From Pseudooceanicola lipolyticus (GTDB lineage Bacteria; Pseudomonadota; Alphaproteobacteria; Rhodobacterales; Rhodobacteraceae): DNA of 64,000 nt. Below, in pieces: positions 16,232 to 34,277 of the stretch. A program made the position numbers and the translations under genes. The notes under the pieces were generated by a model. It was not told the DNA's origin. It worked only from the letters and a program-made list of their open reading frames with translations, and did not search any database. Each line of letters opens with the position of its first letter. Positions within the stretch are counted from its first letter, which is position 1. The stretch lies in assembly GCF_002786325.1 (NCBI RefSeq), contig NZ_PGTB01000004.1, positions 52,696 to 116,695 of the forward strand, read 5' to 3'.

Positions 16232-17551
16232 TCAGATCACCGCATCCATGGCGCGGCCCAGCTTGTCGGTCAGTTCGTCCAGCTGGGTATCCTCGATGAT
16301 GAAGGGCGGGGCAATCAGCACGTGATCGCCGGTCCGGCCGTCGATGGTGCCGGACATCGGATAGCAGATCAGCCCCTGCTCGAACGCTGCCTTCTTGAGC
16401 TTGCCGGCAACCCCCTGCGACGGGTCGAAAGGCGCCTTGCTGTCGCGGTCGGCCACCAGTTCGATGCCGCGGAACAATCCGCGCCCGCGCAGGTCGCCGA
16501 CATGGGGGTGCTGGCCGAACCGGTCGTTCAGCCGTTCGGCCAGTTTTTCACCCTGTTGCTGCGCGCGCTGCACCAGCCCGCGGTCAAGCAGCGCCGAGAC
16601 CACCGCGTGGCCCGCGGCGGCGGCGGTGGGGTGACCGATATAGGTATGCCCGTGCTGGAAAAAGCCCGAGCCGGATTCGATGGCGGCATAGATCTCGGCG
16701 CTGCACAGCATCGCGCCGATGGGCTGGTATCCGGCGCCCAGCCCCTTGGCGATACAGACGATATCGGGCGCCACCCCGTCCTGTTCGCAGGCGAACAGGG
16801 TTCCGGTCCGCCCCATGCCGCACATCACCTCGTCGAGGATCAGCAACACGCCGTATCTGTCGCAGATCTCGCGGATACGCTTGAAATATCCGGGGGCAGG
16901 GGGCACCGCCCCGGCCGTCGCCCCGACCACCGGTTCGGCCATGAAGGCCATCACCGTGTCCGGGCCCAGCCGCAGGATCTCGTCCTCCAGCGCCTGCGCG
17001 GCGCGCAGGCCGTAATCCTCAAGGCTCTCGCCGTCCTGGCGCAGCCGGTATTCGTAACAGGGGTCGATATGGCTGATGTCCAGCAACAGAGGGGCGAACT
17101 GCGCCCGGCGCCATTCGTTGCCGCCGGCGCTGAGCGCGCCGATGGTGTTGCCGTGATAGCTTTGCTTGCGCGCGATCAGCTTGCCGCGCTGCGGTTCGCC
17201 CTTTTCAACCCAATATTGCCGCGCCAGCTTGATCGCCGCCTCGGTGGCCTCGGAACCGCCCGACACCAGATAGACCCGGTCGATCCCTGTCGGGGCGTTG
17301 GCGACCAGCAGGTCGGCCAGCTGTTCCGCCGGTTCCGAGGTGAAAAAGCCGGTATGCGCAAAGGCCAGCGTGTCGGCCTGCGCCTTGATCGCCGCGACGA
17401 TGGCTTTGTCGCTATGTCCCAGGCAGGACACCGCCGCGCCGCCCGATCCGTCGAGATAGCGCTTGCCGCTGGCATCGATCAGGTAACAGCCGTCGCCGCC
17501 GACGGCGACCGGTGGGGATTGGCGGCAATTGCGGGGGAAGATGTGAGACAT
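16232..17551 (-). CDS. Class III PLP aminotransferase, DoeD-like
   Basis: A fold-type I aminotransferase of 439 residues. It has SGGSEATE near 97-104 (phosphate-binding), LILDEVMCG with Asp240 contacting the PLP nitrogen, and Lys269 in CIAKGLGAGY as the Schiff-base lysine. Overall sequence character is that of DoeD, the diaminobutyrate aminotransferase of ectoine degradation. No doeA or doeB gene is near, so the substrate may be another omega-amino acid or diamine. The start at 17551 follows GAGGTCGC. It lies downstream of gabT on the same strand, separated by a hairpin with a T-run. Confidence 0.85.
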   Translation of the reverse strand: MSHIFPRNCRQSPPVAVGGDGCYLIDASGKRYLDGSGGAAVSCLGHSDKAIVAAIKAQADTLAFAHTGFFTSEPAEQLADLLVANAPTGIDRVYLVSGGSEATEAAIKLARQYWVEKGEPQRGKLIARKQSYHGNTIGALSAGGNEWRRAQFAPLLLDISHIDPCYEYRLRQDGESLEDYGLRAAQALEDEILRLGPDTVMAFMAEPVVGATAGAVPPAPGYFKRIREICDRYGVLLILDEVMCGMGRTGTLFACEQDGVAPDIVCIAKGLGAGYQPIGAMLCSAEIYAAIESGSGFFQHGHTYIGHPTAAAAGHAVVSALLDRGLVQRAQQQGEKLAERLNDRFGQHPHVGDLRGRGLFRGIELVADRDSKAPFDPSQGVAGKLKKAAFEQGLICYPMSGTIDGRTGDHVLIAPPFIIEDTQLDELTDKLGRAMDAVI

Positions 17552-17614
17552 TGCGACCTCCTCGAAACGCAGGCCCCAGCGGGCCGGGACAGCGCCCAGC
17601 CTGACGCAGCTTTG

Positions 17615-17650
17615 CAAAAAAGCAACCCGCGCCCCAACCGGAGCGCGGGT
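17615..17650 (-). terminator. Terminator-like hairpin between gabT and the second aminotransferase
   Basis: Read on the minus strand, ACCCGCGC (17650-17643) pairs with GCGCGGGT (17632-17625) around a 10-base loop. The hairpin is followed by TGCTTTTTT. This is a typical rho-independent terminator just beyond the gabT stop and should separate or attenuate expression of the DoeD-like gene. Confidence 0.75.
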
Positions 17651-17662
17651 ATATGCGTGCGA

Positions 17663-19063
17663 TCAGGCGCCGCGTTCCGCCATTGCGTCGGCCAGCGCGG
17701 CCTCGAAAATGCCCATGCCTTCGTCGAGGATCGCATCCGACGCGGTCAGCGGCACCATGATGCGCAGCGCGTTGCCATGCATGCCACAGGGCAGCAGGAT
17801 CAGCCCGCGTTTCAGCGCATGGGCGACCACCGACTTGGTCAGTGCAGCGTCCGGCGTGGCAGTGTCGAAATCGGTCACGAACTCGACCGCCAGCATCGCG
17901 CCCAGGCCGCGGATGTCCCACATCCGGTAGGGCGCGACACGGGCGCCCATATCGGCAAAGCGGGCGCGCATGTTTTCACCGATCGCGGTGGACCGGGCCA
18001 GCAGCCCCTCGCTCTCGATGGCCTCGATGGCGGCGAGCGCGGCGGCACAGGCCACCGGGTTGCCGCCATAGGTGCCGCCCAGCCCGCCAGGCGCCATGGC
18101 GTCCATCACCTCGGCGCGGCCGATCACGCCGGCGATGGGATAGCCCCCCGCCATGCTTTTCGCCACGGTGATCAGGTCGGGGGCAACGCCCGAATGCTCG
18201 ACCGCGAACCAGGTGCCGGTGCGGCCAAACCCGGCCTGGATCTCGTCGGCGATCAGCAGGATGCCCTCGCGGTCGCAGATCGTGCGCAGCGCCTGCCACA
18301 ATTCGGGCGGGGCGGGGTGATAGCCGCCTTCGCCCAGCACCGGTTCAAGAATGATCGCCGCGACGCGGTCGGGCTGAGCATCGGTCAGGAACAGCATCTC
18401 CAGCGCGCGGATCGAATCCGCGACCGAGATTCCGTCGCGCTGGCTGGGGAAGGGCAGGCGGTAGAGATCGGTCGGGAAGGGACCGATATCGCGCTTGTAG
18501 GGCGAGACCTTGCCGGTCAGGCCCAGGGTCAGCAGCGTGCGCCCGTGATAGCCGGCGGTAAAGGCAATGACGCCGGGCCGCCCGGTTGCGGCACGGGCGA
18601 TCTTCACCGCGTTCTCGACCGCCTCGGCACCGGTGGTCACCAGCAACGACTTCTTGGCAAAATCCCCCGGCGCCAGCGCGTTCAGCTTTTCGGCCAGCGC
18701 CACGTAGGGCTCGTAGGGCACCACCTGGAACGAGGTATGGGTATAGCGATCTTCCTGCGCCTTGGCGGCAGCGATCACGGCGGGGTGGCGGTGGCCGGTG
18801 TTCAGCACGGCGATGCCGCCGGCAAAGTCGATAAAGCGCTTGCCCTCGACATCCCAAAGCTCGGCATTCTCGGCGCGCTCGGCGAAGACCGGCGCGGCCG
18901 AAGCGACGCCCCGGGCAACAGCGGCCTCGCGCCGTGCAAGCAGGGCGGCATTGGACGCGCTGGCGGCCGTGGCGGTCGGTTTGGCGGCCTTGCTGCTGGT
19001 CTTGGCGGTGGTGGTGGCAGCGGCCTTGCTGCGGGTCTTGCGCGATTTGGTGGCGGTGGTCAT
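17663..19063 (-). CDS. gabT: 4-aminobutyrate aminotransferase with Ala/Lys/Thr-rich N-terminal extension
   Basis: A 466-residue class III aminotransferase matching GabT/PuuE: FAGGIAVLNTGHRHP, TTGAEAVENAVKIARAATGR, LIADEIQAGFGRTG and the PLP lysine in VAKSMAGGYP. It converts GABA plus 2-oxoglutarate to succinate semialdehyde plus glutamate. Ordinary GabT begins near LLARREAAVARGV. Here about 38 extra residues composed mostly of Ala, Lys, Thr and Ser precede it, like a histone-H1 or phasin tail. The start (19063) has a good GGGAGATACGCC leader, so the extension is probably real. It is transcribed divergently from the XRE-cupin regulator. Confidence 0.9.
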   Translation of the reverse strand: MTTATKSRKTRSKAAATTTAKTSSKAAKPTATAASASNAALLARREAAVARGVASAAPVFAERAENAELWDVEGKRFIDFAGGIAVLNTGHRHPAVIAAAKAQEDRYTHTSFQVVPYEPYVALAEKLNALAPGDFAKKSLLVTTGAEAVENAVKIARAATGRPGVIAFTAGYHGRTLLTLGLTGKVSPYKRDIGPFPTDLYRLPFPSQRDGISVADSIRALEMLFLTDAQPDRVAAIILEPVLGEGGYHPAPPELWQALRTICDREGILLIADEIQAGFGRTGTWFAVEHSGVAPDLITVAKSMAGGYPIAGVIGRAEVMDAMAPGGLGGTYGGNPVACAAALAAIEAIESEGLLARSTAIGENMRARFADMGARVAPYRMWDIRGLGAMLAVEFVTDFDTATPDAALTKSVVAHALKRGLILLPCGMHGNALRIMVPLTASDAILDEGMGIFEAALADAMAERGA

Positions 19064-19262
19064 GGCGTATCTCCCGGCGCACAAAATGTTCAATATTATT
19101 GCCATTCGTCCACTTTAGTTGTCAAACGTTTTGCGCGGTCTGGGCGGACGCTGGCCGGTGTGGCAGGTAAGCGCCTGATTTCGCTTTGGTTAAAAGTGCG
19201 GTTGACCGGCGGAAAATATCGGCGCTTAATAAATTTGACGCCTGAGCTAGGGGATTCATCGG
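19064..19262. promoter_or_regulatory. Divergent control region between gabT and the XRE-cupin regulator
   Basis: For the regulator (+), TTGACC (19202-19207) and TTAATA (19226-19231) are spaced 18 bases. For gabT (-), TTGACA (19125-19120) precedes an AT-rich stretch that includes AATAAT. The perfect palindrome CAATATTATTG (19091-19101) overlaps this minus-strand -10 area and is a candidate operator for the neighbouring XRE-cupin protein. The elements were found by inspection and are not strong matches throughout. Confidence 0.4.
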
Positions 19263-19832
19263 TTGGATATCGGCGGAAGACTGCGGGAGGTACGCGAATC
19301 GCGCGGCATGTCGCAGCGCGACCTGGCCGCGCGCGCCGGGCTGACCAGCAGCGCCATATCCTTGATTGAACAGAATAAATCCAGTCCTTCGGTGGCCTCG
19401 CTCAAACGTCTGCTCGATGCCATTCCAATGAACATGTCCGAGTTCTTCACGGTGGTGGAGCGCGAGGAGCGGCAAAAGTATTTTTACTCGCCCGATGAGT
19501 ATATCGAGCTTTCGCCGCAGGATATCGGCCTCGGCGAAAGCGCTGCGCGGGTGTCGCTGCGCCAGCTTGGAAACGCCTCGCGCCACTCGCTTCAGGTGCT
19601 TCACGAGACCTATCCGCCGGGCGCAGATACCGGGCCGGAACTGCTCAAACATGATGGCGAAGAGGCCGGAATAATCGTGTCCGGCATCATAGAAGTAACC
19701 GTCGGCGACCAGGTGCGCGTGCTGAACCCCGGCGACGGCTACCTGTTCAGCAGCCAGTTGCCGCATCGATTCCGCAATATCAACGACGCCCCCTGCGTCG
19801 TGATCAGCGCCTGCACCCCCCCGACATTCTGA
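19263..19832 (+). CDS. XRE-family regulator with cupin domain, PuuR-like
   Basis: A 189-residue transcription factor. It has an XRE helix-turn-helix at residues about 6-60 (LREVRESRGMSQRDLAARAGLTSSAIS) and a C-terminal cupin (about 105-185, including PGADTGPELLKHDGEEAG and LNPGDGYLFSSQLPHRF) that senses a small ligand. This is the architecture of PuuR, the repressor of putrescine utilisation. It lies between gabT and the TAXI-TRAP genes and should control one or both. The only suitable in-frame start is TTG 19263, preceded by a weak AGGGGA. Confidence 0.85.
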   Translation: MDIGGRLREVRESRGMSQRDLAARAGLTSSAISLIEQNKSSPSVASLKRLLDAIPMNMSEFFTVVEREERQKYFYSPDEYIELSPQDIGLGESAARVSLRQLGNASRHSLQVLHETYPPGADTGPELLKHDGEEAGIIVSGIIEVTVGDQVRVLNPGDGYLFSSQLPHRFRNINDAPCVVISACTPPTF

Positions 19833-19908
19833 ATTCCTGCACGCGCCGGTTGATGTGCAACTGCGTGTCAAGTTGCCATTTTTCAGATTTTGCATTGTCA
19901 TGTTTGGC

Positions 19909-19923
19909 AAGGCTGCTAGCCTT
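19909..19923. promoter_or_regulatory. Perfect dyad upstream of the TAXI binding-protein gene
   Basis: AAGGCT-GCT-AGCCTT is a 6+3+6 perfect inverted repeat about 60 bases before the TAXI gene start, in the 150-base gap after the regulator gene. It may be an operator or a small hairpin in the leader. The AT-richer stretch before it (19870-19905) is the likely promoter area, but I cannot assign -35/-10 elements with confidence. Confidence 0.4.
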
Positions 19924-19982
19924 ACTGCATCAAATGGTCGCAGGTGTTTCGGCAATGACGACCAAAAAATAGGGAGAATGTC

Positions 19983-20945
19983 ATGAATTTGCTTAAAATG
20001 GCTGCACTTGGCGCTGCCGTCGCATTGTCCGGCTCCATCGCCACGGCCCAGGAAAAATTCATTACCATCGGGACCGGTGGCCAGACCGGCGTCTATTACG
20101 TCGTCGGCCAGTCGATCTGCCGGCTGGTGAATCGCGGCTCGGACAGCCACGGGCTGAAATGCACCGCGCCGTCGACCGGCGGGTCGATCGCGAATATCAA
20201 CGCCATCGCGGCGGGGGACATGGATATGGGCGTGGCCCAGTCCGACTGGCAGTACCACGCCTATAACGGCAGTTCGCAGTTCGAGGGCAAGCAGGTGGAA
20301 GACCTGCGCGCGGTGTTCTCGGTCCATGGCGAACCGTTCACCGTGGTGGCCCGCACCGATTCAGGCATCAAGAGTTTTGACGACCTGTTCGGCAAGCGCG
20401 TCAATATCGGCAATCCGGGCTCGGGCCAGCGCGCGACGATGGAAGTCGTGCTGAATGCCGTCGGCAAATCGATCGACGATTTCTCGCTGGCCTCCGAACT
20501 CAAGCCGGCTGAACAATCCGCGGCCCTGGGCGACAACAAGGTCGATGCGATCATCTACACCGTCGGCCACCCCAATGGCTCGATCCAGGAGGCCGCATCG
20601 ACCATCGAGTCGCATATCGTGCCAGTGACCGGCCCGGCGATCGACACGCTGGTGTCGGAGAACCCCTATTACGCCAAGGCGGTCATCCCCGGCGGCATGT
20701 ACAAGGGCACCGATCAGGATGTGGAAACTTTTGGTGTCAAGGCGACCTTCGTGACCTCGGCCAATGTGCCGGACGAAGTGGTCTACGAGGTGGTCAAGGC
20801 GGTGTTCGAAAATTTCAACCGTTTCAAAGATCTGCACCCTGCCTTTGAGAACCTCAACGAAGAGGACATGATCTCGGCCGGCCTGTCGGCCCCGCTGCAT
20901 CCGGGTGCCGAGATGTATTACAAGGAGCGCGGCTGGATCAACTGA
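19983..20945 (+). CDS. TRAP transporter solute-binding protein, TAXI family
   Basis: A periplasmic binding protein of 320 residues with a 22-residue signal peptide (MNLLKMAALGAAVALSGSIATAQ). The mature start KFITIGTGGQTGVYYVVGQ and the later APSTGGSIANINAI and NIGNPGSGQRAT segments are hallmarks of the TAXI group (TRAP-associated extracytoplasmic immunogenic). Characterised TAXI proteins bind glutamate or other small acids. The start follows AGGGAGAATGTC. It is separated from its membrane partner gene by 164 bases containing a strong hairpin. Confidence 0.92.
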   Translation: MNLLKMAALGAAVALSGSIATAQEKFITIGTGGQTGVYYVVGQSICRLVNRGSDSHGLKCTAPSTGGSIANINAIAAGDMDMGVAQSDWQYHAYNGSSQFEGKQVEDLRAVFSVHGEPFTVVARTDSGIKSFDDLFGKRVNIGNPGSGQRATMEVVLNAVGKSIDDFSLASELKPAEQSAALGDNKVDAIIYTVGHPNGSIQEAASTIESHIVPVTGPAIDTLVSENPYYAKAVIPGGMYKGTDQDVETFGVKATFVTSANVPDEVVYEVVKAVFENFNRFKDLHPAFENLNEEDMISAGLSAPLHPGAEMYYKERGWIN

Positions 20946-20969
20946 TCCTGACCTCAACCGCCGACCTCC

Positions 20970-20992
20970 GGCCCCGCCGCTTGGGCGGGGCC
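20970..20992 (+). terminator. GC-rich intercistronic hairpin after the TAXI gene
   Basis: GGCCCCGCC (20970-20978) pairs perfectly with GGCGGGGCC (20984-20992) around a 5-base loop, without a T-tract. Its place between the binding-protein and permease genes suggests mRNA stabilisation or partial termination that keeps the binding protein in excess. Confidence 0.7.
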
Positions 20993-21109
20993 CTACGATC
21001 CCATCTCCGGATTGGCGCTTGGCGCTTGTCCGGTCAGGAAGCCGGGTGACTTCCCGGACGGGACACACTGTCCCGCCGAGGCAGCCGCCCAGTCAGCAGG
21101 GGCGCGCAT

Positions 21110-23872
21110 ATGACGGATAACAGCAGCCAGCAAAAAGCATCCGCAGTCGAGCAGGAGGCAGCGGGCAGGGGTGGTCTCAGCCAGGCGGAAATCGACGAAC
21201 TTGTCGCTTCCTCCGATATCGGCGGTCGCTCGCCTTCGGTCCCGGTTGCCCGGCTGATCACGGTGATCGCGATCATCTGGTCGCTGTTCCAGCTCTGGAT
21301 CGCCAGTCCCTTGCCCTTCATGCTGGGCTTTGGCGTCTTCAACGATACCGAGGCGCGGTCCTTCCACCTGGCCTTTGCGCTGTTCCTTGCCTTTGCCGCC
21401 TATCCCGCCACCCGGACGCCGTTCCAGATCGGGCTGGGGGTTGTGGTGCCGGCGCTGTTGACCTTCCTGTTCATCTTCGGCGCGAAAGAAGACACGCCGG
21501 TCTGGTGGATCCCGATCGTTGGCCTGGCGATGATCGGGACGATCCTGCTGGGCTCGCCCAAAACGCGGATCCCGGTCTGGGAATGGGCCTTGGCAATTTT
21601 GGGGGCCTGCGCATCGCTGTACCTGTTCGTCTTCTATGACGGCATCGCCCAGCGGGTCGGCGCGCCGATCCTGCAGGACTTCGTCGTTGCCGCCTTCGGC
21701 CTGATGATCCTGCTGGAGGCGACGCGCCGTGCGTTGGGCCCGGCGCTGATGATCGTGGCGACGGTGTTCTTGGCCTATACCTTCCTGGGTCCGCTGATGC
21801 CGGGGATCATTGCGCATAAGGGCAATTCGCTGTCCGAAGTGGTGAACCACCAGTGGATCACCACCGAGGGCGTATTTGGCATCGCGCTGGGGGTCTCGGC
21901 CTCTTTCGTGTTCCTTTTCGTGCTGTTCGGCTCGCTGCTCGACAAGGCCGGGGCCGGCAATTACTTCATTCAGGTCGCCTTCAGCCTGATGGGCCATCTG
22001 CGCGGCGGTCCGGCCAAGGCCGCGGTGGTGTCTTCGGCAATGACCGGCCTGATCTCGGGCTCGTCCATCGCCAATGTGGTCACCACCGGCACCTTCACGA
22101 TCCCGCTGATGAAACGCGTCGGGTTTTCCTCGGAAAAGGCGGGCGCGGTCGAGGTGGCCTCCTCGGTCAATGGCCAGATCATGCCGCCGGTGATGGGGGC
22201 TGCGGCCTTCCTGATGGTGGAATATGTCGGCATTCCCTATTTCGACGTGGTCAAACACGCGTTTTTGCCGGCGGTGATCTCGTATATCGCGCTGGTCTAT
22301 ATCGTGCATCTTGAGGCGATGAAGGCCAACATGCAGGGCCTGCCGCGCCCGCAGGCGCCCAAGCCGCTGGTGGCCTGGCTGATCAGCCTGGCCTTCACCG
22401 TCGCGGTGATCTGCGCGCTGTCCTTCGCGGTTTATTACGGCATGGGCTGGATCCGCCCCGCCTTTGGCGCTTCGGCGGGTTATGTCGTGTTCCTGCTGCT
22501 GGTCGCGGCCTATGTCGGGCTGCTTTACGTCGCCTCGCGCGAGAAGCGGCTGGAGATGGAGGATCCGAACGCGCCGGTGACCAAACTGCCGCTGCCGGGG
22601 CCGACAATCCGCTCGGGGCTGCATTTCCTGCTGCCCGTGGTGGTGCTGGTCTGGGCGCTGATGGTCGACCGCCTGTCGCCCGGCCTCTCGGCTTTCTGGG
22701 CGGCGGCGTTCATGGTGTTCATCCTGATCACCCAGCGCCCAATCGAAGCGATCTTCCGCAACGAGGGCAATATCGCCGCCGCGGCGCAGCGCGGGTTCGG
22801 CGAACTGTTGGGCGGGCTTGAGGCCGGTGCGCGCAACATGATCGGCATCGGCATCGCCACGGCGACCGCCGGGATCATCGTCGGCGCAGTCAGCCAGACC
22901 GGCGTCGGTTCGGCCCTGGCCGACGTGGTCGAGGTGCTGTCGGGCGGCAATATCCTGGCCATCCTGTTCCTGACCGCGATCCTGTCGCTGATCCTGGGCA
23001 TGGGCCTGCCCACCACGGCGAATTACATCGTGGTCTCGGCGCTGCTGGCGCCGGTGATCGTGACGCTGGGCCAGCAGAACGGGTTGATCGTGCCGCTGAT
23101 CGCGGTGCACCTGTTCGTGTTCTATTTCGGCATCATGGCCGATGTGACGCCGCCGGTGGGGTTGGCCTCGTTCGCGGCCGCGGCGGTATCGGGCGGCGAC
23201 CCGATCCGCACCGGGCTGGTCGCGTTCTTCTACAGCCTGCGCACGGCGGCGCTGCCCTTCCTGTTCATCTTCAACACCGACCTTCTGCTGATCAACGTGG
23301 ACTGGGCGCACGGGATATTCGTGTTCATCGTGGCGACGATCGCGATGCTGCTATTTGCCGCCGCGACGCAGGGCTGGTTCCTGGCCCGAAACCAGGTCCA
23401 TGAAACCATCATCCTGCTGCTGGTGGCCTTCACGCTGTTCCGGCCGGGCTTCTGGATGGACATGATCGTGCCGCCCTTCGAAAACGTGCCGCCGTCGCAA
23501 CTGGCACAGGCGATGGGCGATGCCGAGGCGGGGCAGGACCTGCGCCTGACGATCAACGGGGTGAATGCGGTGGGCGATCCGATCACCTTTACCGCGCTAT
23601 TGCCGGTGCCCGAAGGCGCGACTGGTGAGGAGAGGGTGGCCGCCGTCGGGCTCGACCTGATCGAGAGCGACGGCAAGGTGATCATCGACAACGCCGCCTT
23701 CGGCAGCCCGGCGCAGGATGCCGGCCTTGACTGGGACCAGGAGATTGTCGAGGTCTTCGCACCCGCCGAGCAGCCGACCAAATACTGGATGTACCTGCCG
23801 GCGCTGGCGGTTCTGGCGCTGGTGATCTTCCTGCAACGCGGCCGCGCCCGCCGCGTCGCCGCCACGGCCTGA
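21110..23872 (+). CDS. TRAP transporter fused 4TM/12TM permease
   Basis: A 920-residue membrane protein in which DctQ-like and DctM-like parts are fused, as is usual for TAXI systems. A polar N-terminus of about 45 residues precedes many hydrophobic helices. Conserved DctM features appear around VVSSAMTGLISGSSIANVVTTGTFTIP and MGLPTTANYIVVSALLAPV. After the last transport helices, a C-terminal domain (about residues 790-895, TRAP fused-permease DUF3394 type) and a final helix follow. With the TAXI protein it forms a sodium- or proton-driven importer. Starts at ATG 21110. Confidence 0.92.
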   Translation: MTDNSSQQKASAVEQEAAGRGGLSQAEIDELVASSDIGGRSPSVPVARLITVIAIIWSLFQLWIASPLPFMLGFGVFNDTEARSFHLAFALFLAFAAYPATRTPFQIGLGVVVPALLTFLFIFGAKEDTPVWWIPIVGLAMIGTILLGSPKTRIPVWEWALAILGACASLYLFVFYDGIAQRVGAPILQDFVVAAFGLMILLEATRRALGPALMIVATVFLAYTFLGPLMPGIIAHKGNSLSEVVNHQWITTEGVFGIALGVSASFVFLFVLFGSLLDKAGAGNYFIQVAFSLMGHLRGGPAKAAVVSSAMTGLISGSSIANVVTTGTFTIPLMKRVGFSSEKAGAVEVASSVNGQIMPPVMGAAAFLMVEYVGIPYFDVVKHAFLPAVISYIALVYIVHLEAMKANMQGLPRPQAPKPLVAWLISLAFTVAVICALSFAVYYGMGWIRPAFGASAGYVVFLLLVAAYVGLLYVASREKRLEMEDPNAPVTKLPLPGPTIRSGLHFLLPVVVLVWALMVDRLSPGLSAFWAAAFMVFILITQRPIEAIFRNEGNIAAAAQRGFGELLGGLEAGARNMIGIGIATATAGIIVGAVSQTGVGSALADVVEVLSGGNILAILFLTAILSLILGMGLPTTANYIVVSALLAPVIVTLGQQNGLIVPLIAVHLFVFYFGIMADVTPPVGLASFAAAAVSGGDPIRTGLVAFFYSLRTAALPFLFIFNTDLLLINVDWAHGIFVFIVATIAMLLFAAATQGWFLARNQVHETIILLLVAFTLFRPGFWMDMIVPPFENVPPSQLAQAMGDAEAGQDLRLTINGVNAVGDPITFTALLPVPEGATGEERVAAVGLDLIESDGKVIIDNAAFGSPAQDAGLDWDQEIVEVFAPAEQPTKYWMYLPALAVLALVIFLQRGRARRVAATA

Positions 23873-23889
23873 GCGAGGGGAGCCGCGCC

Positions 23890-24315
23890 ATGTTTGACAA
23901 TGTCCTACTGCCGATCGACCTGACCCACCCGGAATCCTGGGAAAAGGCGCTGCCGATGGCGGTGAAGATGTGCGGCCACACCGGCACCTTGCACGTGCTC
24001 GGCATCGTGCATGACCTCGGTGCGGCGATGGTGGCAAGCTATCTGCCCGCCGGCTTCGAACAGGAGGCCCTGCAAAAGATGGAATTCGATCTCGAGACCT
24101 TCCGGGACGAGCGGATTCCCGAAGGCGTCAAGGCAAGGGTCCATGTCGGCCATGGCCATATTCCCGAAAAGGTGCTGGCGGCGGCCAGCGATGTCGCTGC
24201 CGACGTGATTGTGATGGCCTCGCACCCGCCGGACGACTTGCGCTCGATTCTCGTTGGCTCATATGCCGGCAAGGTCGTAAGACATTCCCCGATTCCCGTA
24301 CTCGTGGTGCGGTGA
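23890..24315 (+). CDS. Universal stress protein (UspA family) linked to TRAP
   Basis: A 141-residue alpha/beta protein with the UspA nucleotide-binding pattern near the C-terminus: IVMASHPPDDLRSILVGSYAGKVVRHSPIPVLVV. It starts 17 bases after the permease gene behind GAGGGGAGCC, so it is in the same operon. UspA proteins encoded with TRAP importers (TeaD with the ectoine transporter TeaABC) bind ATP and tune transport. That role is a reasonable inference here. Confidence 0.88.
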   Translation: MFDNVLLPIDLTHPESWEKALPMAVKMCGHTGTLHVLGIVHDLGAAMVASYLPAGFEQEALQKMEFDLETFRDERIPEGVKARVHVGHGHIPEKVLAAASDVAADVIVMASHPPDDLRSILVGSYAGKVVRHSPIPVLVVR

Positions 24316-24403
24316 TGACAGACATGCGCCTGACGCGACAAACGAACGACCCGGCTGCGCCCCTCCTGCGCGGCGGGCGAGCAACAATAAGGACCCGCAA
24401 TAC

Positions 24404-25372
24404 ATGACCCCCTTCGCCATCGCCGGCGTGCAGATGCACGTTTCGGCGCTGCATTCCAACGTCGAAGGCATGCGCCACCGGCTGGAAGTCCTGATGGCCC
24501 GTTTTCCCTGGACCCAGATGGTCCTGTTCTCGGAATTGGCGCCCTTCGGCCCGCTGGACCGTTTTGCGCAGCCGTTTCCGAATGACGCGCTCCAACAATT
24601 TCGCGACGACGCCCGCCGCTTTGGCATCTGGCTGATCCCTGGCTCGATGTTCGAACGGGCCGAAGACGGCCGCGTCTACAACACCTCGGTGGTGATCAAC
24701 CCCGATGGCGACATCGTTGCCAAATATTCCAAGATGTTCCCGTTCCGGCCCTACGAGGCCGGCATCGCGGCGGGCACCGAATTCTGCGTCTTTGACGTGC
24801 CCGAGGTCGGGCGTTTCGGCCTGTCGATCTGCTATGACATCTGGTTCCCCGAAACCACACGGCAGCTGACCAGCGCCGGGGTCGAAGTGCTGCTGCACCC
24901 GGTGCTGACCGGCACCACCGACCGCGACGCCGAACTGGCCATCGCGCGCGCCACCGCGGCGCAGTTCCAGTGCTATGTCATCGACGTCAACGGCCTTGGC
25001 GCTGGCGGCGTCGGACGGTCGCTGGTGGTCGATCCGGCGGCGACGGTGCTGCACCAGTCGGCCGGGCAGGAGGACATGTTCCCGATCGAGGTCGACCTCG
25101 ACCAGGTCCGCCGCCAGCGCGAGACCGGCATCAAGGGGCTGGGCCAGGTGCTGAAAAGCTTCCGCGACCGCGAGGCCGAGTTCAGCGTCTATGACCGCAG
25201 CAGCGGGGCCGATGCCTATCTGAAGACCCTCGGCCCGCTTGAGACTCCGCGGCAGGGGTCGACGCGCGGCCTGCACATGTCGGACCCGCGCACCGCGCTC
25301 AACCATACCGAACGGCCCGATATCCCGCCGCATAACCTGTCCGTCTTCCAGGGAAAGACCGGCTCGGACTGA
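24404..25372 (+). CDS. Nitrilase-superfamily amidohydrolase
   Basis: A 322-residue carbon-nitrogen hydrolase. The Glu-Lys-Cys triad is visible: Glu44 (LFSELAPFG), Lys110 (KYSKMFPFR) and Cys143 (SICYDIWFPE). The family cleaves amides, nitriles or carbamoyl groups; relatives include N-carbamoylputrescine amidase. An unusually long C-terminal tail (about 60 residues, Arg/His/Pro-rich) follows the fold. It lies between the TRAP/UspA genes and a decarboxylase gene, so the substrate is probably an amide of the imported compound or of the amine formed from it. Confidence 0.85.
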   Translation: MTPFAIAGVQMHVSALHSNVEGMRHRLEVLMARFPWTQMVLFSELAPFGPLDRFAQPFPNDALQQFRDDARRFGIWLIPGSMFERAEDGRVYNTSVVINPDGDIVAKYSKMFPFRPYEAGIAAGTEFCVFDVPEVGRFGLSICYDIWFPETTRQLTSAGVEVLLHPVLTGTTDRDAELAIARATAAQFQCYVIDVNGLGAGGVGRSLVVDPAATVLHQSAGQEDMFPIEVDLDQVRRQRETGIKGLGQVLKSFRDREAEFSVYDRSSGADAYLKTLGPLETPRQGSTRGLHMSDPRTALNHTERPDIPPHNLSVFQGKTGSD

Positions 25373-25419
25373 GGGCGACGGAGGAGCGGACCATCAATCG
25401 CGTGAAGGAGGACCCAGCG

Positions 25420-28167
25420 ATGAATGCCCAATCCGGAGACGGTTCGCTCCCATCCATTCGCGACTATTACAGTGCGACCCAGCTGCGCTCGGACCGATGG
25501 AGCGCGCTTCGCGAGGCGGCCGAGGGGCTGTTGCGCAGCGGCGACGAGGGCCGCAAGGGCAAGAAACTGCTGGAAACCGCGGCCCAGCTTTTCGAGGCGC
25601 TGGAACCGATCGAGGCCTACTGGGCGTTTCCGGGCGGCAGCAGCTTTGCGCATCTGCGCCGACTGCTTGATCACGGCAATTACGAGGATCTGCTGACCTC
25701 GGTGCGCCGGGTGGCGCGGGCGCTGACCTCGGGCGCCTATCGCCGCCGGGCGATCCCGCTGTCCTCGGACGAGGCCGATAACGAGGATTACGAAGACGAA
25801 GCCTCGCTGGCGCCCGAGGCGCGGGCGCTGGGCCGGCCCTATTTCGAGGTGCTGATCGTCGACGAGGTCAATGAACACCAGGAACGGTTCCTGCGCCACA
25901 GCCTGCAACGGATGCGGCGAATGGAAGATCCCTTCATCTACGAACCGGTGGTGGTGCCCTCGCTGGAAGACGCGCTGATCGGCATCCTGTTCAACCACAA
26001 CGTGCAGGCCGTCGTGGTCCGGCCCGGCCTGACGCTGAAGTCGAAAAACGCGCTGCCGGTGATCAGCCAATATTTGAAATGGGTGGGCGACGAAGAAGAG
26101 GTCGACGCGATCCAGCCCTATGAATACGGGCCCGAAGCCTGCCGGCTGATCGCCAAGATCCGGCCCGAGCTGGACGCCTATCTGATCACCGACCGGTCGG
26201 CGGAAGATATCGCGGGGCTGGACCTTGGCCGCTGCCGCCGCGTTTTTTACAACCAGGAAGACTTTCTGGAGCTGCACCTGAACATCCTGCGCGGCGTCGG
26301 GCGGCGGTACAAGACGCCGTTCTTCACCGCGCTCAAGGAATATTCCAAGCAACCCACCGGCGTGTTCCATGCCATGCCGATCAGCCGCGGCAAGTCGATC
26401 TCGCGGTCGCATTGGATCCAGGACATGGGCGCGTTTTACGGTCCCAACATCTTCCTTGCCGAAACCTCGGCCACCTCCGGCGGGCTCGACAGCCTGCTCG
26501 AGCCGCGCGGACCGATCAAGGAAGCGCAGGACATGGCGGCGCAGGCCTTTGGGTCGAAACACACCTATTTCGCCACTAACGGCACCTCGACCTGCAACAA
26601 GATCGTGGTGCAGGCGCTGATCCGCCCCGGCGACATCGTGCTGGTCGACCGTGACTGCCACAAGTCGCACCATTACGGCATGGTGCTGGCGGGGGCGAAT
26701 GTCGTCTACATGGACAGCTATCCGCTGCACGAATATTCGATGTATGGCGCGGTGCCCACCAGCGAGATCAAGCATCAGCTGCTCAGGCTGAAGGCGGCGG
26801 GCAAGCTGGACAAGGTGCGGATGATCACCCTGACCAACTGCACCTTCGACGGCGTGGTCTATAACGTCGAGCGTGTGATGGAGGAATGCCTCGCCATCAA
26901 GAAGGACCTGGTGTTCCTGTGGGACGAGGCGTGGTTTGCCTTTGCCCGGTTCGAACCGACCTATCGCCAGCGCACCGCAATGAGCACCGCCAACGCGCTG
27001 CGGCAAAAGCTGAAGGCGCCCGAAGCTGCCGCCGCCTGGGAGGCGCAGCAGGCCAAGCTGGCGGATGCGGACGAGGCCAAGTGGCTGAACACCCGGCTGG
27101 TGCCGCCGCCGGACGCCCGGGTCCGGGTCTATGCCACGCAATCCACCCACAAGACCCTGACCTCGCTGCGGCAGGGCTCGATGATCCATGTCAACGATCA
27201 GGATTTCAAAGGCGAGGTCGAGCAGGCCTTTCACGAAGCCTTCATGACCCACACGTCCACTTCGCCCAATTACCAGATCATCGCCTCGCTGGATGTCGGG
27301 CGGCGGCAGGTCGAACTGGAGGGGTTCGAGTTCGTGCAGAGGCAGGTGGAAAGCGCCATGGCGATCCGCCGCGCGGTGTCCACGCATCCGCTGCTGCAGA
27401 AGTATTTCAAGGTGCTGACGGTGGCCGACGTGATCCCCGAGACCTATCGATCCACCGCGTCGACCCATTATTACGACCCCAAGCAGGGCTGGACCGACAA
27501 ATGGGCGATGTGGGCCGAGGACGAATTCGTGCTGGACCCGACACGCATCACCCTGGCGGTGGGCGGCACCGGCTGGGATGGCGACACGTTCAAGACCAAG
27601 ATCCTGATGGACAAATACGGGATCCAGATCAACAAGACCTCGCGCAACACCGTCTTGTTCATGACCAATATCGGCACCACGCGGTCTTCGGTCGCCTATC
27701 TGATCGAGGTGCTGGTCGAGATCGCGAACGAGCTGGACGACCTGCTGGACGACGCCTCGAAGATGGAAAAGCGGTCCTTCGAAAACCGCGTCGCCGCGCT
27801 GATCGAACACGTGCCGCCGCTGCCCGATTTCAGCCGCTTCCACGACGCGTTCCGTGCCGGGGGAGACACGCCCGAAGGCGATATCCGCACCGCGTATTTC
27901 CTCGCCTATGACGAGGACAAATGCGACTATCTCGCGCTGGACGACGGCCTGATGAAACGGCTGGAAAGCGGCGAGGAACTGGTCTCGACCAGCTTTATCA
28001 TCCCCTATCCGCCGGGCTTTCCGATCCTGGTGCCGGGGCAGGTGATCAGCCCCGAAATCCTGCAATTCATGCGGGCGCTGGATGTCAGCGAAATCCACGG
28101 ATACCGCGCCGATCTGGGTCTGCGCGTGTTCACCAAGGAAGCGCTCGACGCGCTGTCCAAAAAATAA
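25420..28167 (+). CDS. Large Orn/Lys/Arg-type PLP decarboxylase
   Basis: A 915-residue fold-type I decarboxylase. The N-terminal region to about 290 includes a receiver-like wing domain (FEVLIVDEVNEHQERF). The PLP domain follows (FFATNGTSTCNKIV analogue; HKSHH; LWDEAWFAF), with the Schiff-base lysine in QSTHKTL (Lys578). A C-terminal domain completes it. The family removes the alpha-carboxylate of lysine, ornithine or arginine. A segment around 525-560 rich in Ala, Glu and Lys looks like an insertion before the PLP lysine. I start it at ATG 25420, eight bases after AGGAGG, not at GTG 25402. It is coupled to the ATP-grasp gene 20 bases downstream. Confidence 0.88.
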   Translation: MNAQSGDGSLPSIRDYYSATQLRSDRWSALREAAEGLLRSGDEGRKGKKLLETAAQLFEALEPIEAYWAFPGGSSFAHLRRLLDHGNYEDLLTSVRRVARALTSGAYRRRAIPLSSDEADNEDYEDEASLAPEARALGRPYFEVLIVDEVNEHQERFLRHSLQRMRRMEDPFIYEPVVVPSLEDALIGILFNHNVQAVVVRPGLTLKSKNALPVISQYLKWVGDEEEVDAIQPYEYGPEACRLIAKIRPELDAYLITDRSAEDIAGLDLGRCRRVFYNQEDFLELHLNILRGVGRRYKTPFFTALKEYSKQPTGVFHAMPISRGKSISRSHWIQDMGAFYGPNIFLAETSATSGGLDSLLEPRGPIKEAQDMAAQAFGSKHTYFATNGTSTCNKIVVQALIRPGDIVLVDRDCHKSHHYGMVLAGANVVYMDSYPLHEYSMYGAVPTSEIKHQLLRLKAAGKLDKVRMITLTNCTFDGVVYNVERVMEECLAIKKDLVFLWDEAWFAFARFEPTYRQRTAMSTANALRQKLKAPEAAAAWEAQQAKLADADEAKWLNTRLVPPPDARVRVYATQSTHKTLTSLRQGSMIHVNDQDFKGEVEQAFHEAFMTHTSTSPNYQIIASLDVGRRQVELEGFEFVQRQVESAMAIRRAVSTHPLLQKYFKVLTVADVIPETYRSTASTHYYDPKQGWTDKWAMWAEDEFVLDPTRITLAVGGTGWDGDTFKTKILMDKYGIQINKTSRNTVLFMTNIGTTRSSVAYLIEVLVEIANELDDLLDDASKMEKRSFENRVAALIEHVPPLPDFSRFHDAFRAGGDTPEGDIRTAYFLAYDEDKCDYLALDDGLMKRLESGEELVSTSFIIPYPPGFPILVPGQVISPEILQFMRALDVSEIHGYRADLGLRVFTKEALDALSKK

Positions 28168-28187
28168 ACCGACGGGAGGTCCAAGGA

Positions 28188-29639
28188 ATGGTCAAGAAAA
28201 CGCTCAAGAACATCTCGGAAATCCGCCGGTATTTCCACACCAACAAGGATCCGATCTATTTCGTGTCCGCGACCAACTTCAACCTGCTGGGGCTGGACGA
28301 GTGGGTGAAGAACTTCAAGTATATCTGCTATATGGACTGTTTCGACGGGCGTCACCCGAACGTGCTGTGCCCCTCGGAAATGCCGCATGACGAATTCCAG
28401 TCGATCGAGGACATCAACAACTACCTGCTGCAGCACAAGGAGGTGGTCGATTACGTGAAGGCGCGCGGCGGCAAGCCGAAATTCGTCTTCCTGATGTTCG
28501 ACGAGAAGACCGAGAAACTGGCCAAGGATCTTGGTGGCGAGGTCTGGTTCCCCAAGGCCAAGCTGCGCACCGCGATGGATAACAAGATCGAAACGGTCCG
28601 CGTCGGCAACAAGGCCGATGTGCCCTCGGTTCCCAACACCCTGTCCGAGGTGAAGGACTATGCCCATCTGCAGGAGATCTGCAAAAAGGCCGGGCTGGGC
28701 GATGACCTGGTGCTGCAATCGGCCTTTGGCGATAGCGGCCACACCACGTTCTTCATCAAGTCCGAGGCCGATTTCCGCAAATACGAACACGAGATCGTCG
28801 GCGAGGGCGAGATCAAGATCATGAAGCGGATCGATTGCCGCGGCTCGGCGATCGAGGCCTGCGCCACGTCGCAGGGCACTATCGTTGGCCCGCTGATGAC
28901 GGAACTGGTGGGGTTCAAGGAGCTGACCCCCTACCGGGGCGGCTGGTGCGGCAACGAGATCTTCTCGACCGCGTTCAGCCCCAAGCAGCGGCAGAAGGCG
29001 CGCGAGCTGACCTTCCAGTTCGGCGAGCAGCTGAGGAAAGAGGGCTATCGCGGTTATTTCGAGCTGGATTTCCTGATCGACAAGAAGAACGACGATATCT
29101 GGCTGGGCGAGCTGAACCCGCGTATTACCGGCGCTTCGTCGATGACCAACCACGCCGCCTTTGCCCATGCCGACGCGCCGCTGTTCCTGTTCCACCTGCT
29201 TGAATTCTCGAAGAAACCCTTCGATCTGGACGTGGACGAACTGAACGCGCGCTGGTCCGATCCCGACATGATCGACAGCTGGTCGCAGATGGTGATCAAG
29301 CACACCGAGGACAGCGTCGACATCATCACCGAGGCGCCGCAATCGGGCATTTACCGGATGACGCCGGAAGGCAAGGTGGTGTTCAACCGCTTTGACTATC
29401 ACCGCCGCGCGGTCGAGACCGAGGACGAGGCGTTTTTCCTGCGTATCTCCAACGTGGGCGATTATCGTTACGAGGGCGCCGACCTTGGCATTCTGGTCAC
29501 CCGCGGCCGGTCGATGACACCAAGCTTTCAGCTGACCGACAAATCCAAGCGCTGGATCGACGGGATCAAGGCCTGTTATAAGGCGCGCCAGCTTCCCTCG
29601 GCGCAAACCTTCGAGGATCCGGCGTTCAAGATCATGTAA
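28188..29639 (+). CDS. Stand-alone ATP-grasp enzyme
   Basis: A 483-residue protein with an ATP-grasp core resembling biotin carboxylase or carboxylate-amine ligases: LVLQSAFGDSGHTTF (nucleotide-binding loop), EIKIMKRIDCRGSAIEA, and Glu308 and Asn310 in GELNPRITGAS (metal ligands). The N-terminal 150 residues and the C-terminal 120 residues are not recognised. No biotin carrier or carboxyltransferase gene is nearby, so a biotin carboxylase role is unlikely. The start follows GGGAGGTCCAAGGA. Adjacent to an amine-forming decarboxylase and a nitrilase, it may ligate an amine to a carboxylate. Confidence 0.75.
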   Translation: MVKKTLKNISEIRRYFHTNKDPIYFVSATNFNLLGLDEWVKNFKYICYMDCFDGRHPNVLCPSEMPHDEFQSIEDINNYLLQHKEVVDYVKARGGKPKFVFLMFDEKTEKLAKDLGGEVWFPKAKLRTAMDNKIETVRVGNKADVPSVPNTLSEVKDYAHLQEICKKAGLGDDLVLQSAFGDSGHTTFFIKSEADFRKYEHEIVGEGEIKIMKRIDCRGSAIEACATSQGTIVGPLMTELVGFKELTPYRGGWCGNEIFSTAFSPKQRQKARELTFQFGEQLRKEGYRGYFELDFLIDKKNDDIWLGELNPRITGASSMTNHAAFAHADAPLFLFHLLEFSKKPFDLDVDELNARWSDPDMIDSWSQMVIKHTEDSVDIITEAPQSGIYRMTPEGKVVFNRFDYHRRAVETEDEAFFLRISNVGDYRYEGADLGILVTRGRSMTPSFQLTDKSKRWIDGIKACYKARQLPSAQTFEDPAFKIM

Positions 29640-30805: not shown

Positions 30806-31783
30806 ATGTCCCTGACCTTCACCGCCCTCAGCGAAGACGCGCCCGGCCCCAAATGGGCCGGCCTGTTTTCGGCATATCGCGACTCCTACCTCGCCTGGTG
30901 GGAACGCGAGGGCATCGGGGTGCGGCCCACCTATATGGAGGGGCTGAACGCGCTGCGCCGGCATATGCCCGAGCTGGTGCCGCTTTACGAACAGCTGGTC
31001 GAGCTTGCCGGCGGTGGCGACCGCGAGGCCCGGTTCCTCAGCTTCTACTGCCCGCCGCGCTATCTATCCGGCTGCAGCCAGGCGATCTGGCCCGGTGACC
31101 GGCCGCTGATCGTGCGGAACTACGACTATAACCCTGCCGCCGTCGACGCGGTGTTGCTGAAAACCGGCTGGCAGGGGCGCAGGGTCATCGGCATGTCGGA
31201 CGGCCTTTTCGGCCTGGTGGACGGCATGAACGAGGATGGGCTGGCGGTATCGCTGACCTTTGGCGGCCGGCAGGAGGTTGGCCCCGGCTTTGGCGTGCCG
31301 TTGATCCTGCGGTACATCCTGCAAACCTGCCGCACCACGGCCGAGGCGCAGGAGGTGCTGGTGCGGGTGCCCAGCCATATGAGCTATAACGTCACCGTGC
31401 TGGACCGCGACCGCCGCTTTGTGACCGCCTATCTGGCCCCGGACCGGCGCACCGTGATCAGCCATGCCGCGGTGGCGACCAACCACCAGGAGCGCGTCGA
31501 GTGGAACATTCACGCCCGCGTCACCGCCACGGTCGAGCGCGAGCGCTATCTGTTGCAGCGCCTGACGCTGCATACCGAGCCCGAGCACAAGTTCATCCGC
31601 GCCTTCCTGCGCCCGCCGCTGTATTCCCTGGCCTTCGACCGCGGCTTTGGCACCCTCTACACTGCGGCCTATCGGCCTGCGGAGGGCCAGGTCGATCTGT
31701 TCTGGCCGGGCCGGCAATGGACCAAGAGCTTCGACGCGTTCGAAGAAGACCAGACGCATATCACCTATCCGGTTCCAGACTGA
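30806..31783 (+). CDS. C45-type autoproteolytic acyltransferase/hydrolase
   Basis: A 325-residue Ntn-hydrolase-fold protein resembling acyl-CoA:6-aminopenicillanate acyltransferase (peptidase family C45). The presumed nucleophile is the cysteine in YLSGCSQAIW (about residue 91), followed by the expected RNYDYN segment, then GMNEDGLAVSLTFGG and TNHQE. Members cleave themselves before the cysteine and hydrolyse or exchange amide-linked acyl groups. It lies just upstream of a LysR gene and a polyamine-type transport operon, which suggests an acylated amine as substrate. No signal peptide is visible. Confidence 0.8.
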   Translation: MSLTFTALSEDAPGPKWAGLFSAYRDSYLAWWEREGIGVRPTYMEGLNALRRHMPELVPLYEQLVELAGGGDREARFLSFYCPPRYLSGCSQAIWPGDRPLIVRNYDYNPAAVDAVLLKTGWQGRRVIGMSDGLFGLVDGMNEDGLAVSLTFGGRQEVGPGFGVPLILRYILQTCRTTAEAQEVLVRVPSHMSYNVTVLDRDRRFVTAYLAPDRRTVISHAAVATNHQERVEWNIHARVTATVERERYLLQRLTLHTEPEHKFIRAFLRPPLYSLAFDRGFGTLYTAAYRPAEGQVDLFWPGRQWTKSFDAFEEDQTHITYPVPD

Positions 31784-32885: not shown

Positions 32886-33103
32886 ATGCCAGTTTCTGAT
32901 TAATGAATTTGCGAACGCAGAGGCGTCTTACCATAGTGACCATGCGGCAAATGAATCGTGCGCCTGAACAGCGGGCGATTCTGGATCGCGCCCCGGCATG
33001 CGACCGGGTCAAAACCAAAATCATCTTGGGCAACCGGCGGCGCCGGCTGGTCAGTTCTGACCGGCCAGTGGGGCCACGCGGATCGCCCCGCAGGGAGATT
33101 GCT

Positions 33104-34261: not shown

Positions 34262-34277
34262 TCTTCTGCAACCCCGT

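What the first reader, a model, noticed from the sequence alone, without database searches (positions are those of the whole stretch)
16232..29639. Possible new amine pathway: TAXI-TRAP, UspA, nitrilase, decarboxylase and ATP-grasp genes beside a PuuR-like regulator and two aminotransferases
The sequence shows a plus-strand run of TAXI binding protein, fused permease, UspA, nitrilase-family hydrolase, Orn/Lys/Arg-type decarboxylase (PLP Lys578) and a stand-alone ATP-grasp enzyme. Divergent from it are GabT and a DoeD-like aminotransferase, with an XRE-cupin regulator of PuuR architecture between them. In the Puu pathway putrescine is gamma-glutamylated (PuuA), oxidised, then freed by an amidase (PuuD), with PuuE (GabT-like) and PuuR. 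My inference is that here the decarboxylase makes the amine, the ATP-grasp enzyme conjugates it to a carboxylate, and the nitrilase removes the conjugate. None of these activities is shown by sequence alone.
Basis: partly seen in the sequence, partly recalled or inferred. Interest (0 to 1): 0.72.

Follow-up and report, generated by a model that had tools for sequence, protein, structure and literature searches.

The report
Conserved four-gene amide-making and amide-cutting cassette
Near this bacterium's GABA-degrading gene sits a conserved set of four enzyme genes (two amide-cutting enzymes, one probable amide-making enzyme and one decarboxylase) that probably form an undescribed route for breaking down amines or amino acids, though the exact substrate is unknown.

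Summary
The genes are real and mostly as described. All four occur together in 85 of 99 fetched loci, in four gene orders. In a 398-genome phylum draw, all 11 genomes with the ATP-grasp (this one included) also carry the decarboxylase and C45 gene, 9 of 11 the nitrilase.

The ATP-grasp is annotated "biotin carboxylase" but lacks the bicarbonate/base residues, so a ligase is likelier. Context points to GABA: this genome's only close GabT lies in the same locus, with a PatD-like operon downstream.

The decarboxylase lacks the PGHx(G/H)G motif of five E. coli Orn/Lys/Arg decarboxylases, and Asn replaces the CadA/SpeC Glu in 97 of 97 sequences. Stand-alone relatives sit beside AspT-family antiporters.

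Best reading: an ATP-using amide protection/deprotection route ending in GABA, analogous to but not a member of the Puu pathway. The chemistry is inferred. Ten answered paper searches found no description.

The parts
16232..17617 (-). class-III aminotransferase, PRK07483 type (not DoeD proper)
   Evidence: 768 bits, cut-off 485; a homologue at 50% identity or more in 7 of 99 related loci
17663..19105 (-). GabT, 4-aminobutyrate transaminase; only close GabT found in this genome
   Evidence: TIGR00700 552 bits, cut-off 507; at 50% identity or more in 38 of 99 loci
19263..19832 (+). XRE-cupin regulator related to PuuR
   Evidence: at 50% identity or more in 33 of 99 loci
19983..20945 (+). TAXI-type TRAP solute-binding protein
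   Evidence: 30 of 99 loci
21110..23872 (+). fused TRAP permease with DUF3394
   Evidence: 30 of 99 loci
23890..24315 (+). UspA-family protein
   Evidence: 22 of 99 loci at 50% identity or more
24404..25372 (+). core gene 1: nitrilase-family amidase; Glu44, Lys110, Cys143 conserved
   Evidence: residues in 90 of 90 sequences
25402..28167 (+). core gene 2: Rv2531c-type PLP decarboxylase of the OKR_DC_1 superfamily (alternative ATG start at 25420)
   Evidence: (828 bits to PDB 9n0n/9n0o)
28188..29639 (+). core gene 3: stand-alone ATP-grasp protein, NCBIfam PRK06524 'biotin carboxylase', lacking biotin-carboxylase catalytic residues
29783..30613 (+). alpha/beta hydrolase inserted between ATP-grasp and C45 genes; not conserved
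   Evidence: no match at E 1e-8 in 99 related loci
30806..31783 (+). core gene 4: C45 family autoproteolytic Ntn hydrolase/acyltransferase; Cys90
   Evidence: in the same stretch as the ATP-grasp gene in 97 of 99 loci; Cys in 98 of 98
31945..32859 (+). LysR-family regulator (probably of the next operon)
32903..37060 (+). YdcSTUV-like ABC transporter genes (binding protein 32903-34261, ATPase 34280-35308, permeases 35305-36264 and 36254-37060); below the equivalog cut-offs
   Evidence: same order as E. coli ydcSTUV; no close YdcS or PatD orthologue in the 99 related loci
37073..38497 (+). PatD-like gamma-aminobutyraldehyde dehydrogenase
   Evidence: PRK13473 787 bits, cut-off 615; TIGR03374 735 bits, cut-off 909

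Best explanation
A four-gene catabolic cassette for amide protection and deprotection of a C4/C5 amino compound, draining into GABA. Shown by sequence: the four genes are inherited together, three of them keep the catalytic residues of their families (nitrilase, C45, PLP decarboxylase) while the ATP-grasp keeps only the metal/ATP motif, and GABA-end enzymes recur in the same loci. Inferred: (1) the ATP-grasp enzyme uses ATP to join a carboxylate to an amino group of an ornithine-, arginine- or putrescine-type compound; (2) the Rv2531c-type decarboxylase removes the alpha-carboxyl of the conjugated (neutral or acidic at the far end) rather than the free basic amino acid; in the Shinella-type loci a racemase-like / D-amino-acid-dehydrogenase / 2-oxo-acid-decarboxylase set takes its place; (3) an aminotransferase and an aldehyde dehydrogenase oxidise the freed end while the amide prevents ring closure; (4) the C45 Ntn hydrolase, perhaps with the nitrilase, cuts the amide and releases GABA; (5) GabT and a succinate-semialdehyde dehydrogenase finish. 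It would work like the gamma-glutamylated putrescine (Puu) pathway but with unrelated ligase and hydrolase families.
For: Co-inheritance: all four genes in 85 of 99 loci, ATP-grasp with C45 in 97 of 99, with the decarboxylase in 96 of 99, in four gene orders; in 398 genomes all 11 with the ATP-grasp (this genome included) have decarboxylase and C45, 9 of 11 the nitrilase, in the same stretch in the ten others. Ligase rather than carboxylase: residues aligned to biotin-carboxylase Gln294-Val295-Glu296 are Thr/Ser/Cys-Gly-Ala/Cys/Ile and that aligned to Lys238 is Cys/Ala/Ser in 100 of 100 sequences, while the Glu-x-Asn-x-Arg motif is kept (residue roles recalled; the Lys238 position rests on a weak pairwise alignment). 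Amide hydrolases: nitrilase Glu-Lys-Cys in 90 of 90, C45 Cys in 98 of 98; a C45 enzyme, AzsT, removes an N-succinyl group in azaserine biosynthesis (PMC10445470, passages). GABA end: the only close GabT of the genome is in the locus; GabT in 38 and GabT, PRK07483-type aminotransferase or SSADH in 44 of 99 loci; SSADH-type genes in L053 and L110; PatD-like run downstream in this window. Arginine/ornithine/polyamine hints: an ornithine-racemase-like/arginase-family fusion, AruI-type decarboxylase and agmatinase in L085 (same annotation in L099); PotD/PotB-like carrier (below equivalog cut-offs) in L014; urea transporter domain in L111/L112.
Against: No substrate or product is known for any of the four enzymes. 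Acidic-amino-acid hints compete: stand-alone relatives of the decarboxylase lie beside AspT-family antiporters in 4 of 4 loci read, of six such genomes; Cupriavidus L088 has a DctA/GltP-type symporter and a glutamate/aspartate-type binding protein after the cassette (below equivalog cut-offs); glutamate dehydrogenase-like genes lie near it in Rhizobium L086 and L087 (Pfam), and a glutamate-synthase-like gene in L084. None of the three GABA-end genes is in 55 of 99 loci (43 of the 80 loci of 19 kb or more), and no carrier of the three kinds probed is in 54 of 99. The PatD-like run has no close orthologue in the 99 relatives. Arginine decarboxylase AdiA also lacks the CadA Glu526 (Thr there), so free arginine is not excluded. 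The order of decarboxylation and conjugation is a guess. L111 and L112 (one genus) and the five Rhizobium/Sinorhizobium plasmid stretches lack the nitrilase. C45 and nitrilase relatives also occur without the ATP-grasp (3 of 14 and 4 of 13 genomes).
Confidence: 0.4

Rival explanations
1. Glutamate/GABA (or aspartate/beta-alanine) amide cycle. The decarboxylase makes GABA or beta-alanine from a free acidic amino acid brought in by TAXI-TRAP, GltP-type or other carriers; the ATP-grasp joins that product to a partner, making a storage or compatible-solute-like amide; C45 and nitrilase release it and GabT drains it.
For: Replacement of the basic-substrate motifs (PGHx(G/H)G mostly to xPxSRGK; CadA Glu526 to Asn in 97 of 97; Pro530 to Arg in 96 of 97); AspT-family antiporters beside stand-alone relatives, in L127 with aspartate 4-decarboxylase; glutamate/aspartate-type carriers in L088 and glutamate enzymes in L084, L086, L087; the cassette lies inside an ectoine (compatible solute) gene cluster in L106 and L107 (doeA, doeB, eutB and EhuR models passed for L107); a nitrilase relative without the other three lies near gabT and an SSADH-type gene in L128.
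Against: The cassette-type decarboxylase differs from the AspT-linked ones at a conserved loop (Tyr against Gln/Leu at CadA Tyr403), so their substrates may differ. Does not explain the polyamine-type carrier of L014, the arginine/ornithine-type set without this decarboxylase in L085, or the urea transporter.
Confidence: 0.27
2. One reading: the decarboxylase acts on free ornithine, lysine or arginine, the ATP-grasp conjugates the diamine and the nitrilase removes the conjugate.
For: Superfamily of the decarboxylase (Pfam OKR_DC_1), GABA-end genes, PuuR-related regulator, PatD-like run.
Against: Loss of Orn/Lys/Arg decarboxylase motifs; C45, not the nitrilase, is the hydrolase found most often with the ATP-grasp (97 against 89 of 99).
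Confidence: 0.15
3. The ATP-grasp is a true or biotin-independent carboxylase (for example of a guanidine, urea or amide nitrogen) and the amidases hydrolyse the carboxylated product.
For: NCBIfam name and score (PRK06524, 760 bits, cut-off 684); best sequence relatives in the PDB are biotin-dependent carboxylases; arginase-family, agmatinase and urea-transporter neighbours in a few loci.
Against: Residues aligned to the bicarbonate/base residues are replaced in 100 of 100 sequences; no biotin carrier or carboxyltransferase recognised by eye in the ORFs listed.
Confidence: 0.07
4. The cassette is part of ectoine or diaminobutyrate degradation.
For: In L106 and L107 it sits between doeX-like and doeC-like genes of an otherwise standard doe/eut cluster.
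Against: Halomonas elongata has doeX directly followed by doeC (PMC3187862, passages); DoeA-like genes occur in only 2 of 99 loci.
Confidence: 0.05

Closest known systems
Puu pathway (gamma-glutamylated putrescine degradation, PuuA-PuuB-PuuC-PuuD-PuuE, PuuR)
   Same: Proposed logic of ATP-driven amide formation, oxidation of the other end, amide hydrolysis to GABA and a GabT-type transaminase; related XRE-cupin regulator family.
   Different: Ligase candidate is ATP-grasp, not glutamine-synthetase-like PuuA; hydrolase candidates are C45 Ntn and nitrilase, not PuuD; an amino-acid decarboxylase is built in. (Puu enzyme families recalled.)
Rv2531c, probable amino acid decarboxylase (PDB 9n0n, 9n0o, 9n0p)
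   Same: Full-length homologue of the window decarboxylase (828 bits over residues 27-916); shares the INKTS and ARG changes in that alignment.
   Different: Its activity was not clarified (PMC12910592, passages); it has Gln where the cassette type has Tyr in the TSPN loop, and Ile where it has Arg.
AzsT, C45 hydrolase of azaserine biosynthesis
   Same: C45 family enzyme reported to remove an N-succinyl group (PMC10445470, passages): the role proposed here.
   Different: Works on a carrier-bound hydrazine intermediate in natural-product biosynthesis. That cluster also holds an ATP-grasp protein (AzsJ), which its authors think is not needed; I did not compare it with this one.
Biotin carboxylase / pyruvate carboxylase N-terminal domain
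   Same: Sequence relatives of the ATP-grasp protein (profile E 1.2e-7 to PDB 3tw6).
   Different: Aligned bicarbonate/base residues and the GGGGRG loop replaced.
NIT2/DavA-type omega-amidases and N-carbamoylputrescine amidase (AguB)
   Same: Nitrilase superfamily, Glu-Lys-Cys triad.
   Different: Below every NCBIfam subfamily cut-off shown, e.g. AguB 65 bits against 410. DavA recalled, not compared.
E. coli ydcSTUV-patD
   Same: Same gene order and families as window 32903-38497.
   Different: Near the cassette only in this window, not in the 99 related loci.

Membership tests
Puu pathway | PuuA-like (glutamine-synthetase family) gamma-glutamylputrescine synthetase in the locus | tested here: inconclusive
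   None recognised by eye among window ORFs, no profile search for it; ligase candidate is ATP-grasp
Puu pathway | PuuD gamma-glutamyl-GABA hydrolase in the locus | tested here: inconclusive
   Hydrolases identified are nitrilase and C45; no profile search for PuuD
Puu pathway | PuuR regulator | tested here: not met
   PRK09943 140 bits, cut-off 211; related, not equivalent by this model
Puu pathway | GABA transaminase (PuuE/GabT) | tested here: met
   TIGR00700 552 bits, cut-off 507
Biotin carboxylase | Catalytic Lys238, Arg292, Gln294, Glu296 (roles recalled) | tested here: not met
   Only Arg kept; Cys/Ala/Ser, Thr/Ser/Cys, Ala/Cys/Ile at the others in 100 of 100 sequences
Biotin carboxylase | Partner biotin carrier and carboxyltransferase | tested here: inconclusive
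   None recognised by eye in the ORFs of the window and of 23 selected loci; not a profile search
Orn/Lys/Arg decarboxylase (OKR_DC_1) | PLP lysine with His before it, Asp330/Trp333 (CadA numbering) | tested here: met
   96 of 96 readable, one sequence gapped
Orn/Lys/Arg decarboxylase of free basic substrates | PGHx(G/H)G motif and Glu526 (Glu in CadA, LdcC, SpeC, SpeF; Thr in AdiA) | tested here: not met
   Mostly xPxSRGK (Arg in 95 of 95 readable) and Asn in 97 of 97
Nitrilase superfamily | Glu-Lys-Cys triad | tested here: met
   90 of 90
C45 (AAT-like) Ntn hydrolases | Family model and autoprocessing Cys | tested here: met
   NF040521 170 bits, cut-off 85; Cys 98 of 98
DoeD (diaminobutyrate transaminase) | Same subfamily as the doe-cluster aminotransferase | tested here: not met
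   P0001 is PRK07483, that of L107 is PRK07482
ATP-grasp amide ligase | ATP-dependent amide formation | not testable with these tools

The most novel reading that the evidence does not exclude
A new protecting-group pathway: an ATP-grasp ligase caps the distal nitrogen of ornithine (or a relative), a previously unassigned decarboxylase family acts only on the capped amino acid, and a C45 Ntn hydrolase removes the cap at GABA. Rv2531c-type decarboxylases would then be decarboxylases of capped or acidic amino acids rather than of arginine, lysine or ornithine.
Probability: 0.25. Interest if true: 0.75.

Novelty: new variant of a known kind. Interest (0 to 1): 0.52.

Why it matters
Four enzymes without an assigned substrate here ('biotin carboxylase' PRK06524, C45 hydrolase, carbon-nitrogen hydrolase, Rv2531c-type decarboxylase) are tied into one pathway with a predicted chemical logic and a predicted end product. 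If true, that corrects a misleading automatic annotation, gives a concrete test for a decarboxylase family whose solved structures have no known substrate, and points to an unrecognised way of using amines or amino acids in many Rhodobacterales and in some Rhizobium symbiosis-type plasmids.

Tried and rejected
Structure prediction for the ATP-grasp protein: switched off, so no fold comparison was made; profile search against PDB sequences used instead. Rejected or ranked low: biotin-carboxylase complex; agmatine deiminase/N-carbamoylputrescine route (no AguA match in this genome; nitrilase far below the AguB cut-off); ectoine pathway as the general function. TAXI-TRAP as a core part: only 30 of 99 loci. 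Agmatinase-family matches in this genome number six, four over the cut-off, none on the window's contig, so they did not help. Ten answered paper searches (not all aimed at the gene set, being on Rv2531c) listed no paper that I recognised as describing it. Passages were read in PMC12910592, PMC10445470, PMC5320631 and PMC3187862; other hits were seen only as search listings with the start of their abstracts. The library holds open-licence papers only.

Limits of the counts. The 99 loci are the 80 best of 319 matches, 9 plasmid stretches that I chose from 32 records, and 10 from the genome draw. L030 and L086 lack a full C45 gene in the stretch (L086 has a fragment); L019, L062 and L078 are cut short before the nitrilase. 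Presence means a BLASTP match at E 1e-20 in an ORF of 100 aa or more. The hypergeometric values ignore kinship. Gene names were read by eye from translated starts of ORFs picked by length and GC3; only those scanned are backed by profiles, and several of these are below the equivalog cut-off (Pot-like, Ydc-like, GltP-like, AspT in L125, L126 and L134, ornithine racemase and arginase models in L085). Biotin-carboxylase and CadA residue roles, and the Puu, AruI and DavA schemes, are recalled.


Full report
WHAT IS THERE. The plus-strand run is XRE-cupin, TAXI binding protein, fused TRAP permease, Usp, nitrilase, decarboxylase, ATP-grasp; GabT and a PRK07483-type aminotransferase run the other way. 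Two things were missed. A C45 family Ntn hydrolase follows at 30806-31783, and further on lies a ydcSTUV-patD-like run with an aminobutyraldehyde dehydrogenase, in the order of E. coli.

THE CONSERVED UNIT. I fetched 80 related loci around the ATP-grasp gene, nine plasmid stretches and ten stretches from an even draw of 398 genomes of the phylum. Over these 99 loci, all four core genes are present in 85, ATP-grasp with C45 in 97, ATP-grasp with decarboxylase in 96, ATP-grasp with nitrilase in 89. The order varies: nitrilase-decarboxylase-ATP-grasp-C45 in most; nitrilase-ATP-grasp-C45-decarboxylase in L106, L107 and L109; decarboxylase further upstream in four Paracoccus loci (L043, L044, L046, L051); and a divergent arrangement in L110. 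In the 398-genome draw the ATP-grasp occurs in 11 genomes of 10 genera (this genome included), the decarboxylase in 17 including all 11, C45 in 14 including all 11, and the nitrilase in 13 including 9 of 11; in the ten other genomes they lie in the same stretch. This is strong evidence for a functional unit, though related genomes are not independent.

WHAT VARIES AROUND IT. Carriers differ by lineage: TAXI-TRAP in 30 of 99, a PotD/PotB-like carrier in Leisingera L014, a DctA/GltP-type symporter with a glutamate/aspartate-type binding protein in Cupriavidus L088, a dipeptide-type ABC carrier in Roseobacter ponti and Rhizobium, and an amino acid permease in Shinella L085; in 54 of 99 none of the three kinds probed (TAXI, Pot, Dpp) was found. 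GabT at 50% identity or more is in 38 of 99 loci, and GabT, the second aminotransferase or SSADH in 44 of 99. In this genome the GabT of the locus, about 5 kb from the nitrilase, is the only close one; the other matches are at 34-38% identity, among them the neighbouring PRK07483 protein. In Shinella L085 and the like-annotated L099 the decarboxylase is missing, and the ATP-grasp, C45 and nitrilase genes sit with a protein that joins an ornithine-racemase-like to an arginase-family domain, a D-amino acid dehydrogenase, an AruI-type 2-oxo-acid decarboxylase, an aldehyde dehydrogenase and an agmatinase (profiles for L085), a set that could take arginine or ornithine to GABA (inference). In L106 and L107 the cassette lies between doeX-like and doeC-like genes of an ectoine cluster (L107 profiles), where Halomonas elongata has doeX directly followed by doeC (PMC3187862).

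THE ENZYMES. The ATP-grasp protein scores above the cut-off of NCBIfam 'biotin carboxylase' PRK06524 but has no Pfam match. Its best PDB relatives are biotin-dependent carboxylases. Aligned to them, it keeps the Glu-x-Asn-x-Arg motif but has Thr/Ser/Cys-Gly-Ala/Cys/Ile where carboxylases have Gln-Val-Glu, Cys/Ala/Ser at the position aligned to Lys238, and GDSG in the glycine loop, in 100 of 100 sequences. I read it as a ligase. The decarboxylase is a full-length homologue of Rv2531c, which has structures but no clarified activity (PMC12910592). It keeps the PLP residues but lacks the PGHx(G/H)G motif of AdiA, CadA, LdcC, SpeC and SpeF, and has Asn for CadA Glu526 in 97 of 97 and Arg for Pro530 in 96 of 97. 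That speaks against free lysine or ornithine; arginine is less clear because AdiA has Thr there. Of six genomes in the draw with the decarboxylase but no ATP-grasp, I read four (two of one genus), and in all four an AspT-family antiporter gene lies beside it (the aspartate-alanine equivalog cut-off is passed only in L127), which hints at acidic substrates for that branch. The nitrilase and C45 catalytic residues are intact in all sequences compared.

HOW IT MOST LIKELY WORKS. I favour an amide protection/deprotection route ending in GABA: ATP-grasp makes the amide, the decarboxylase acts on a conjugated or otherwise non-basic amino acid, oxidation follows, and C45 and/or the nitrilase frees GABA for GabT. 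The parts list and their linkage are shown; every chemical step is inferred. The main rival is a glutamate/GABA or aspartate/beta-alanine amide cycle.

NOVELTY. I rate it a new variant of a known kind (conjugate-and-release amine degradation), of moderate interest because the chemistry is unproven.

Noticed in passing
L125, L126, L127, L134: Decarboxylase relatives without the ATP-grasp lie beside AspT-family antiporters; in L127 also aspartate 4-decarboxylase.
   Followed up: partly
L106:1243-13944; L107:4633-19410: Whole cassette inserted between doeX-like and doeC-like genes of an ectoine/hydroxyectoine degradation cluster.
   Followed up: partly
L085:15791-17578; L099:13810-15597: 'Alanine racemase' joins an ornithine-racemase-like N-terminal domain to an arginase-family domain (profiles for L085 only, NCBIfam matches below equivalog cut-offs; L099 91% identical).
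   Followed up: partly
L128, L129, L135: A nitrilase relative without the other three core genes lies with a MocR regulator, an MFS carrier and a TonB receptor in L128; similar by eye in L129 (no MocR seen) and L135; in L128 also gabT and an SSADH-type gene.
   Followed up: partly
L111:3483-5657; L112:13871-16042: Urea transporter domain fused to an M23 peptidase domain, close upstream of the cassette.
   Followed up: no
window 32903-38497: ydcSTUV-patD-like run downstream of the cassette; no close orthologue in the 99 related loci.
   Followed up: yes
L087:6628-6984 and L101:4101-4460: On Rhizobium plasmids the cassette genes lie near a Nif11-type RiPP precursor with radical SAM genes; in L100 near nifHDKEN.
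   Followed up: no
window 29783-30613: Alpha/beta hydrolase inserted between the ATP-grasp and C45 genes, not found in 99 related loci.
   Followed up: yes
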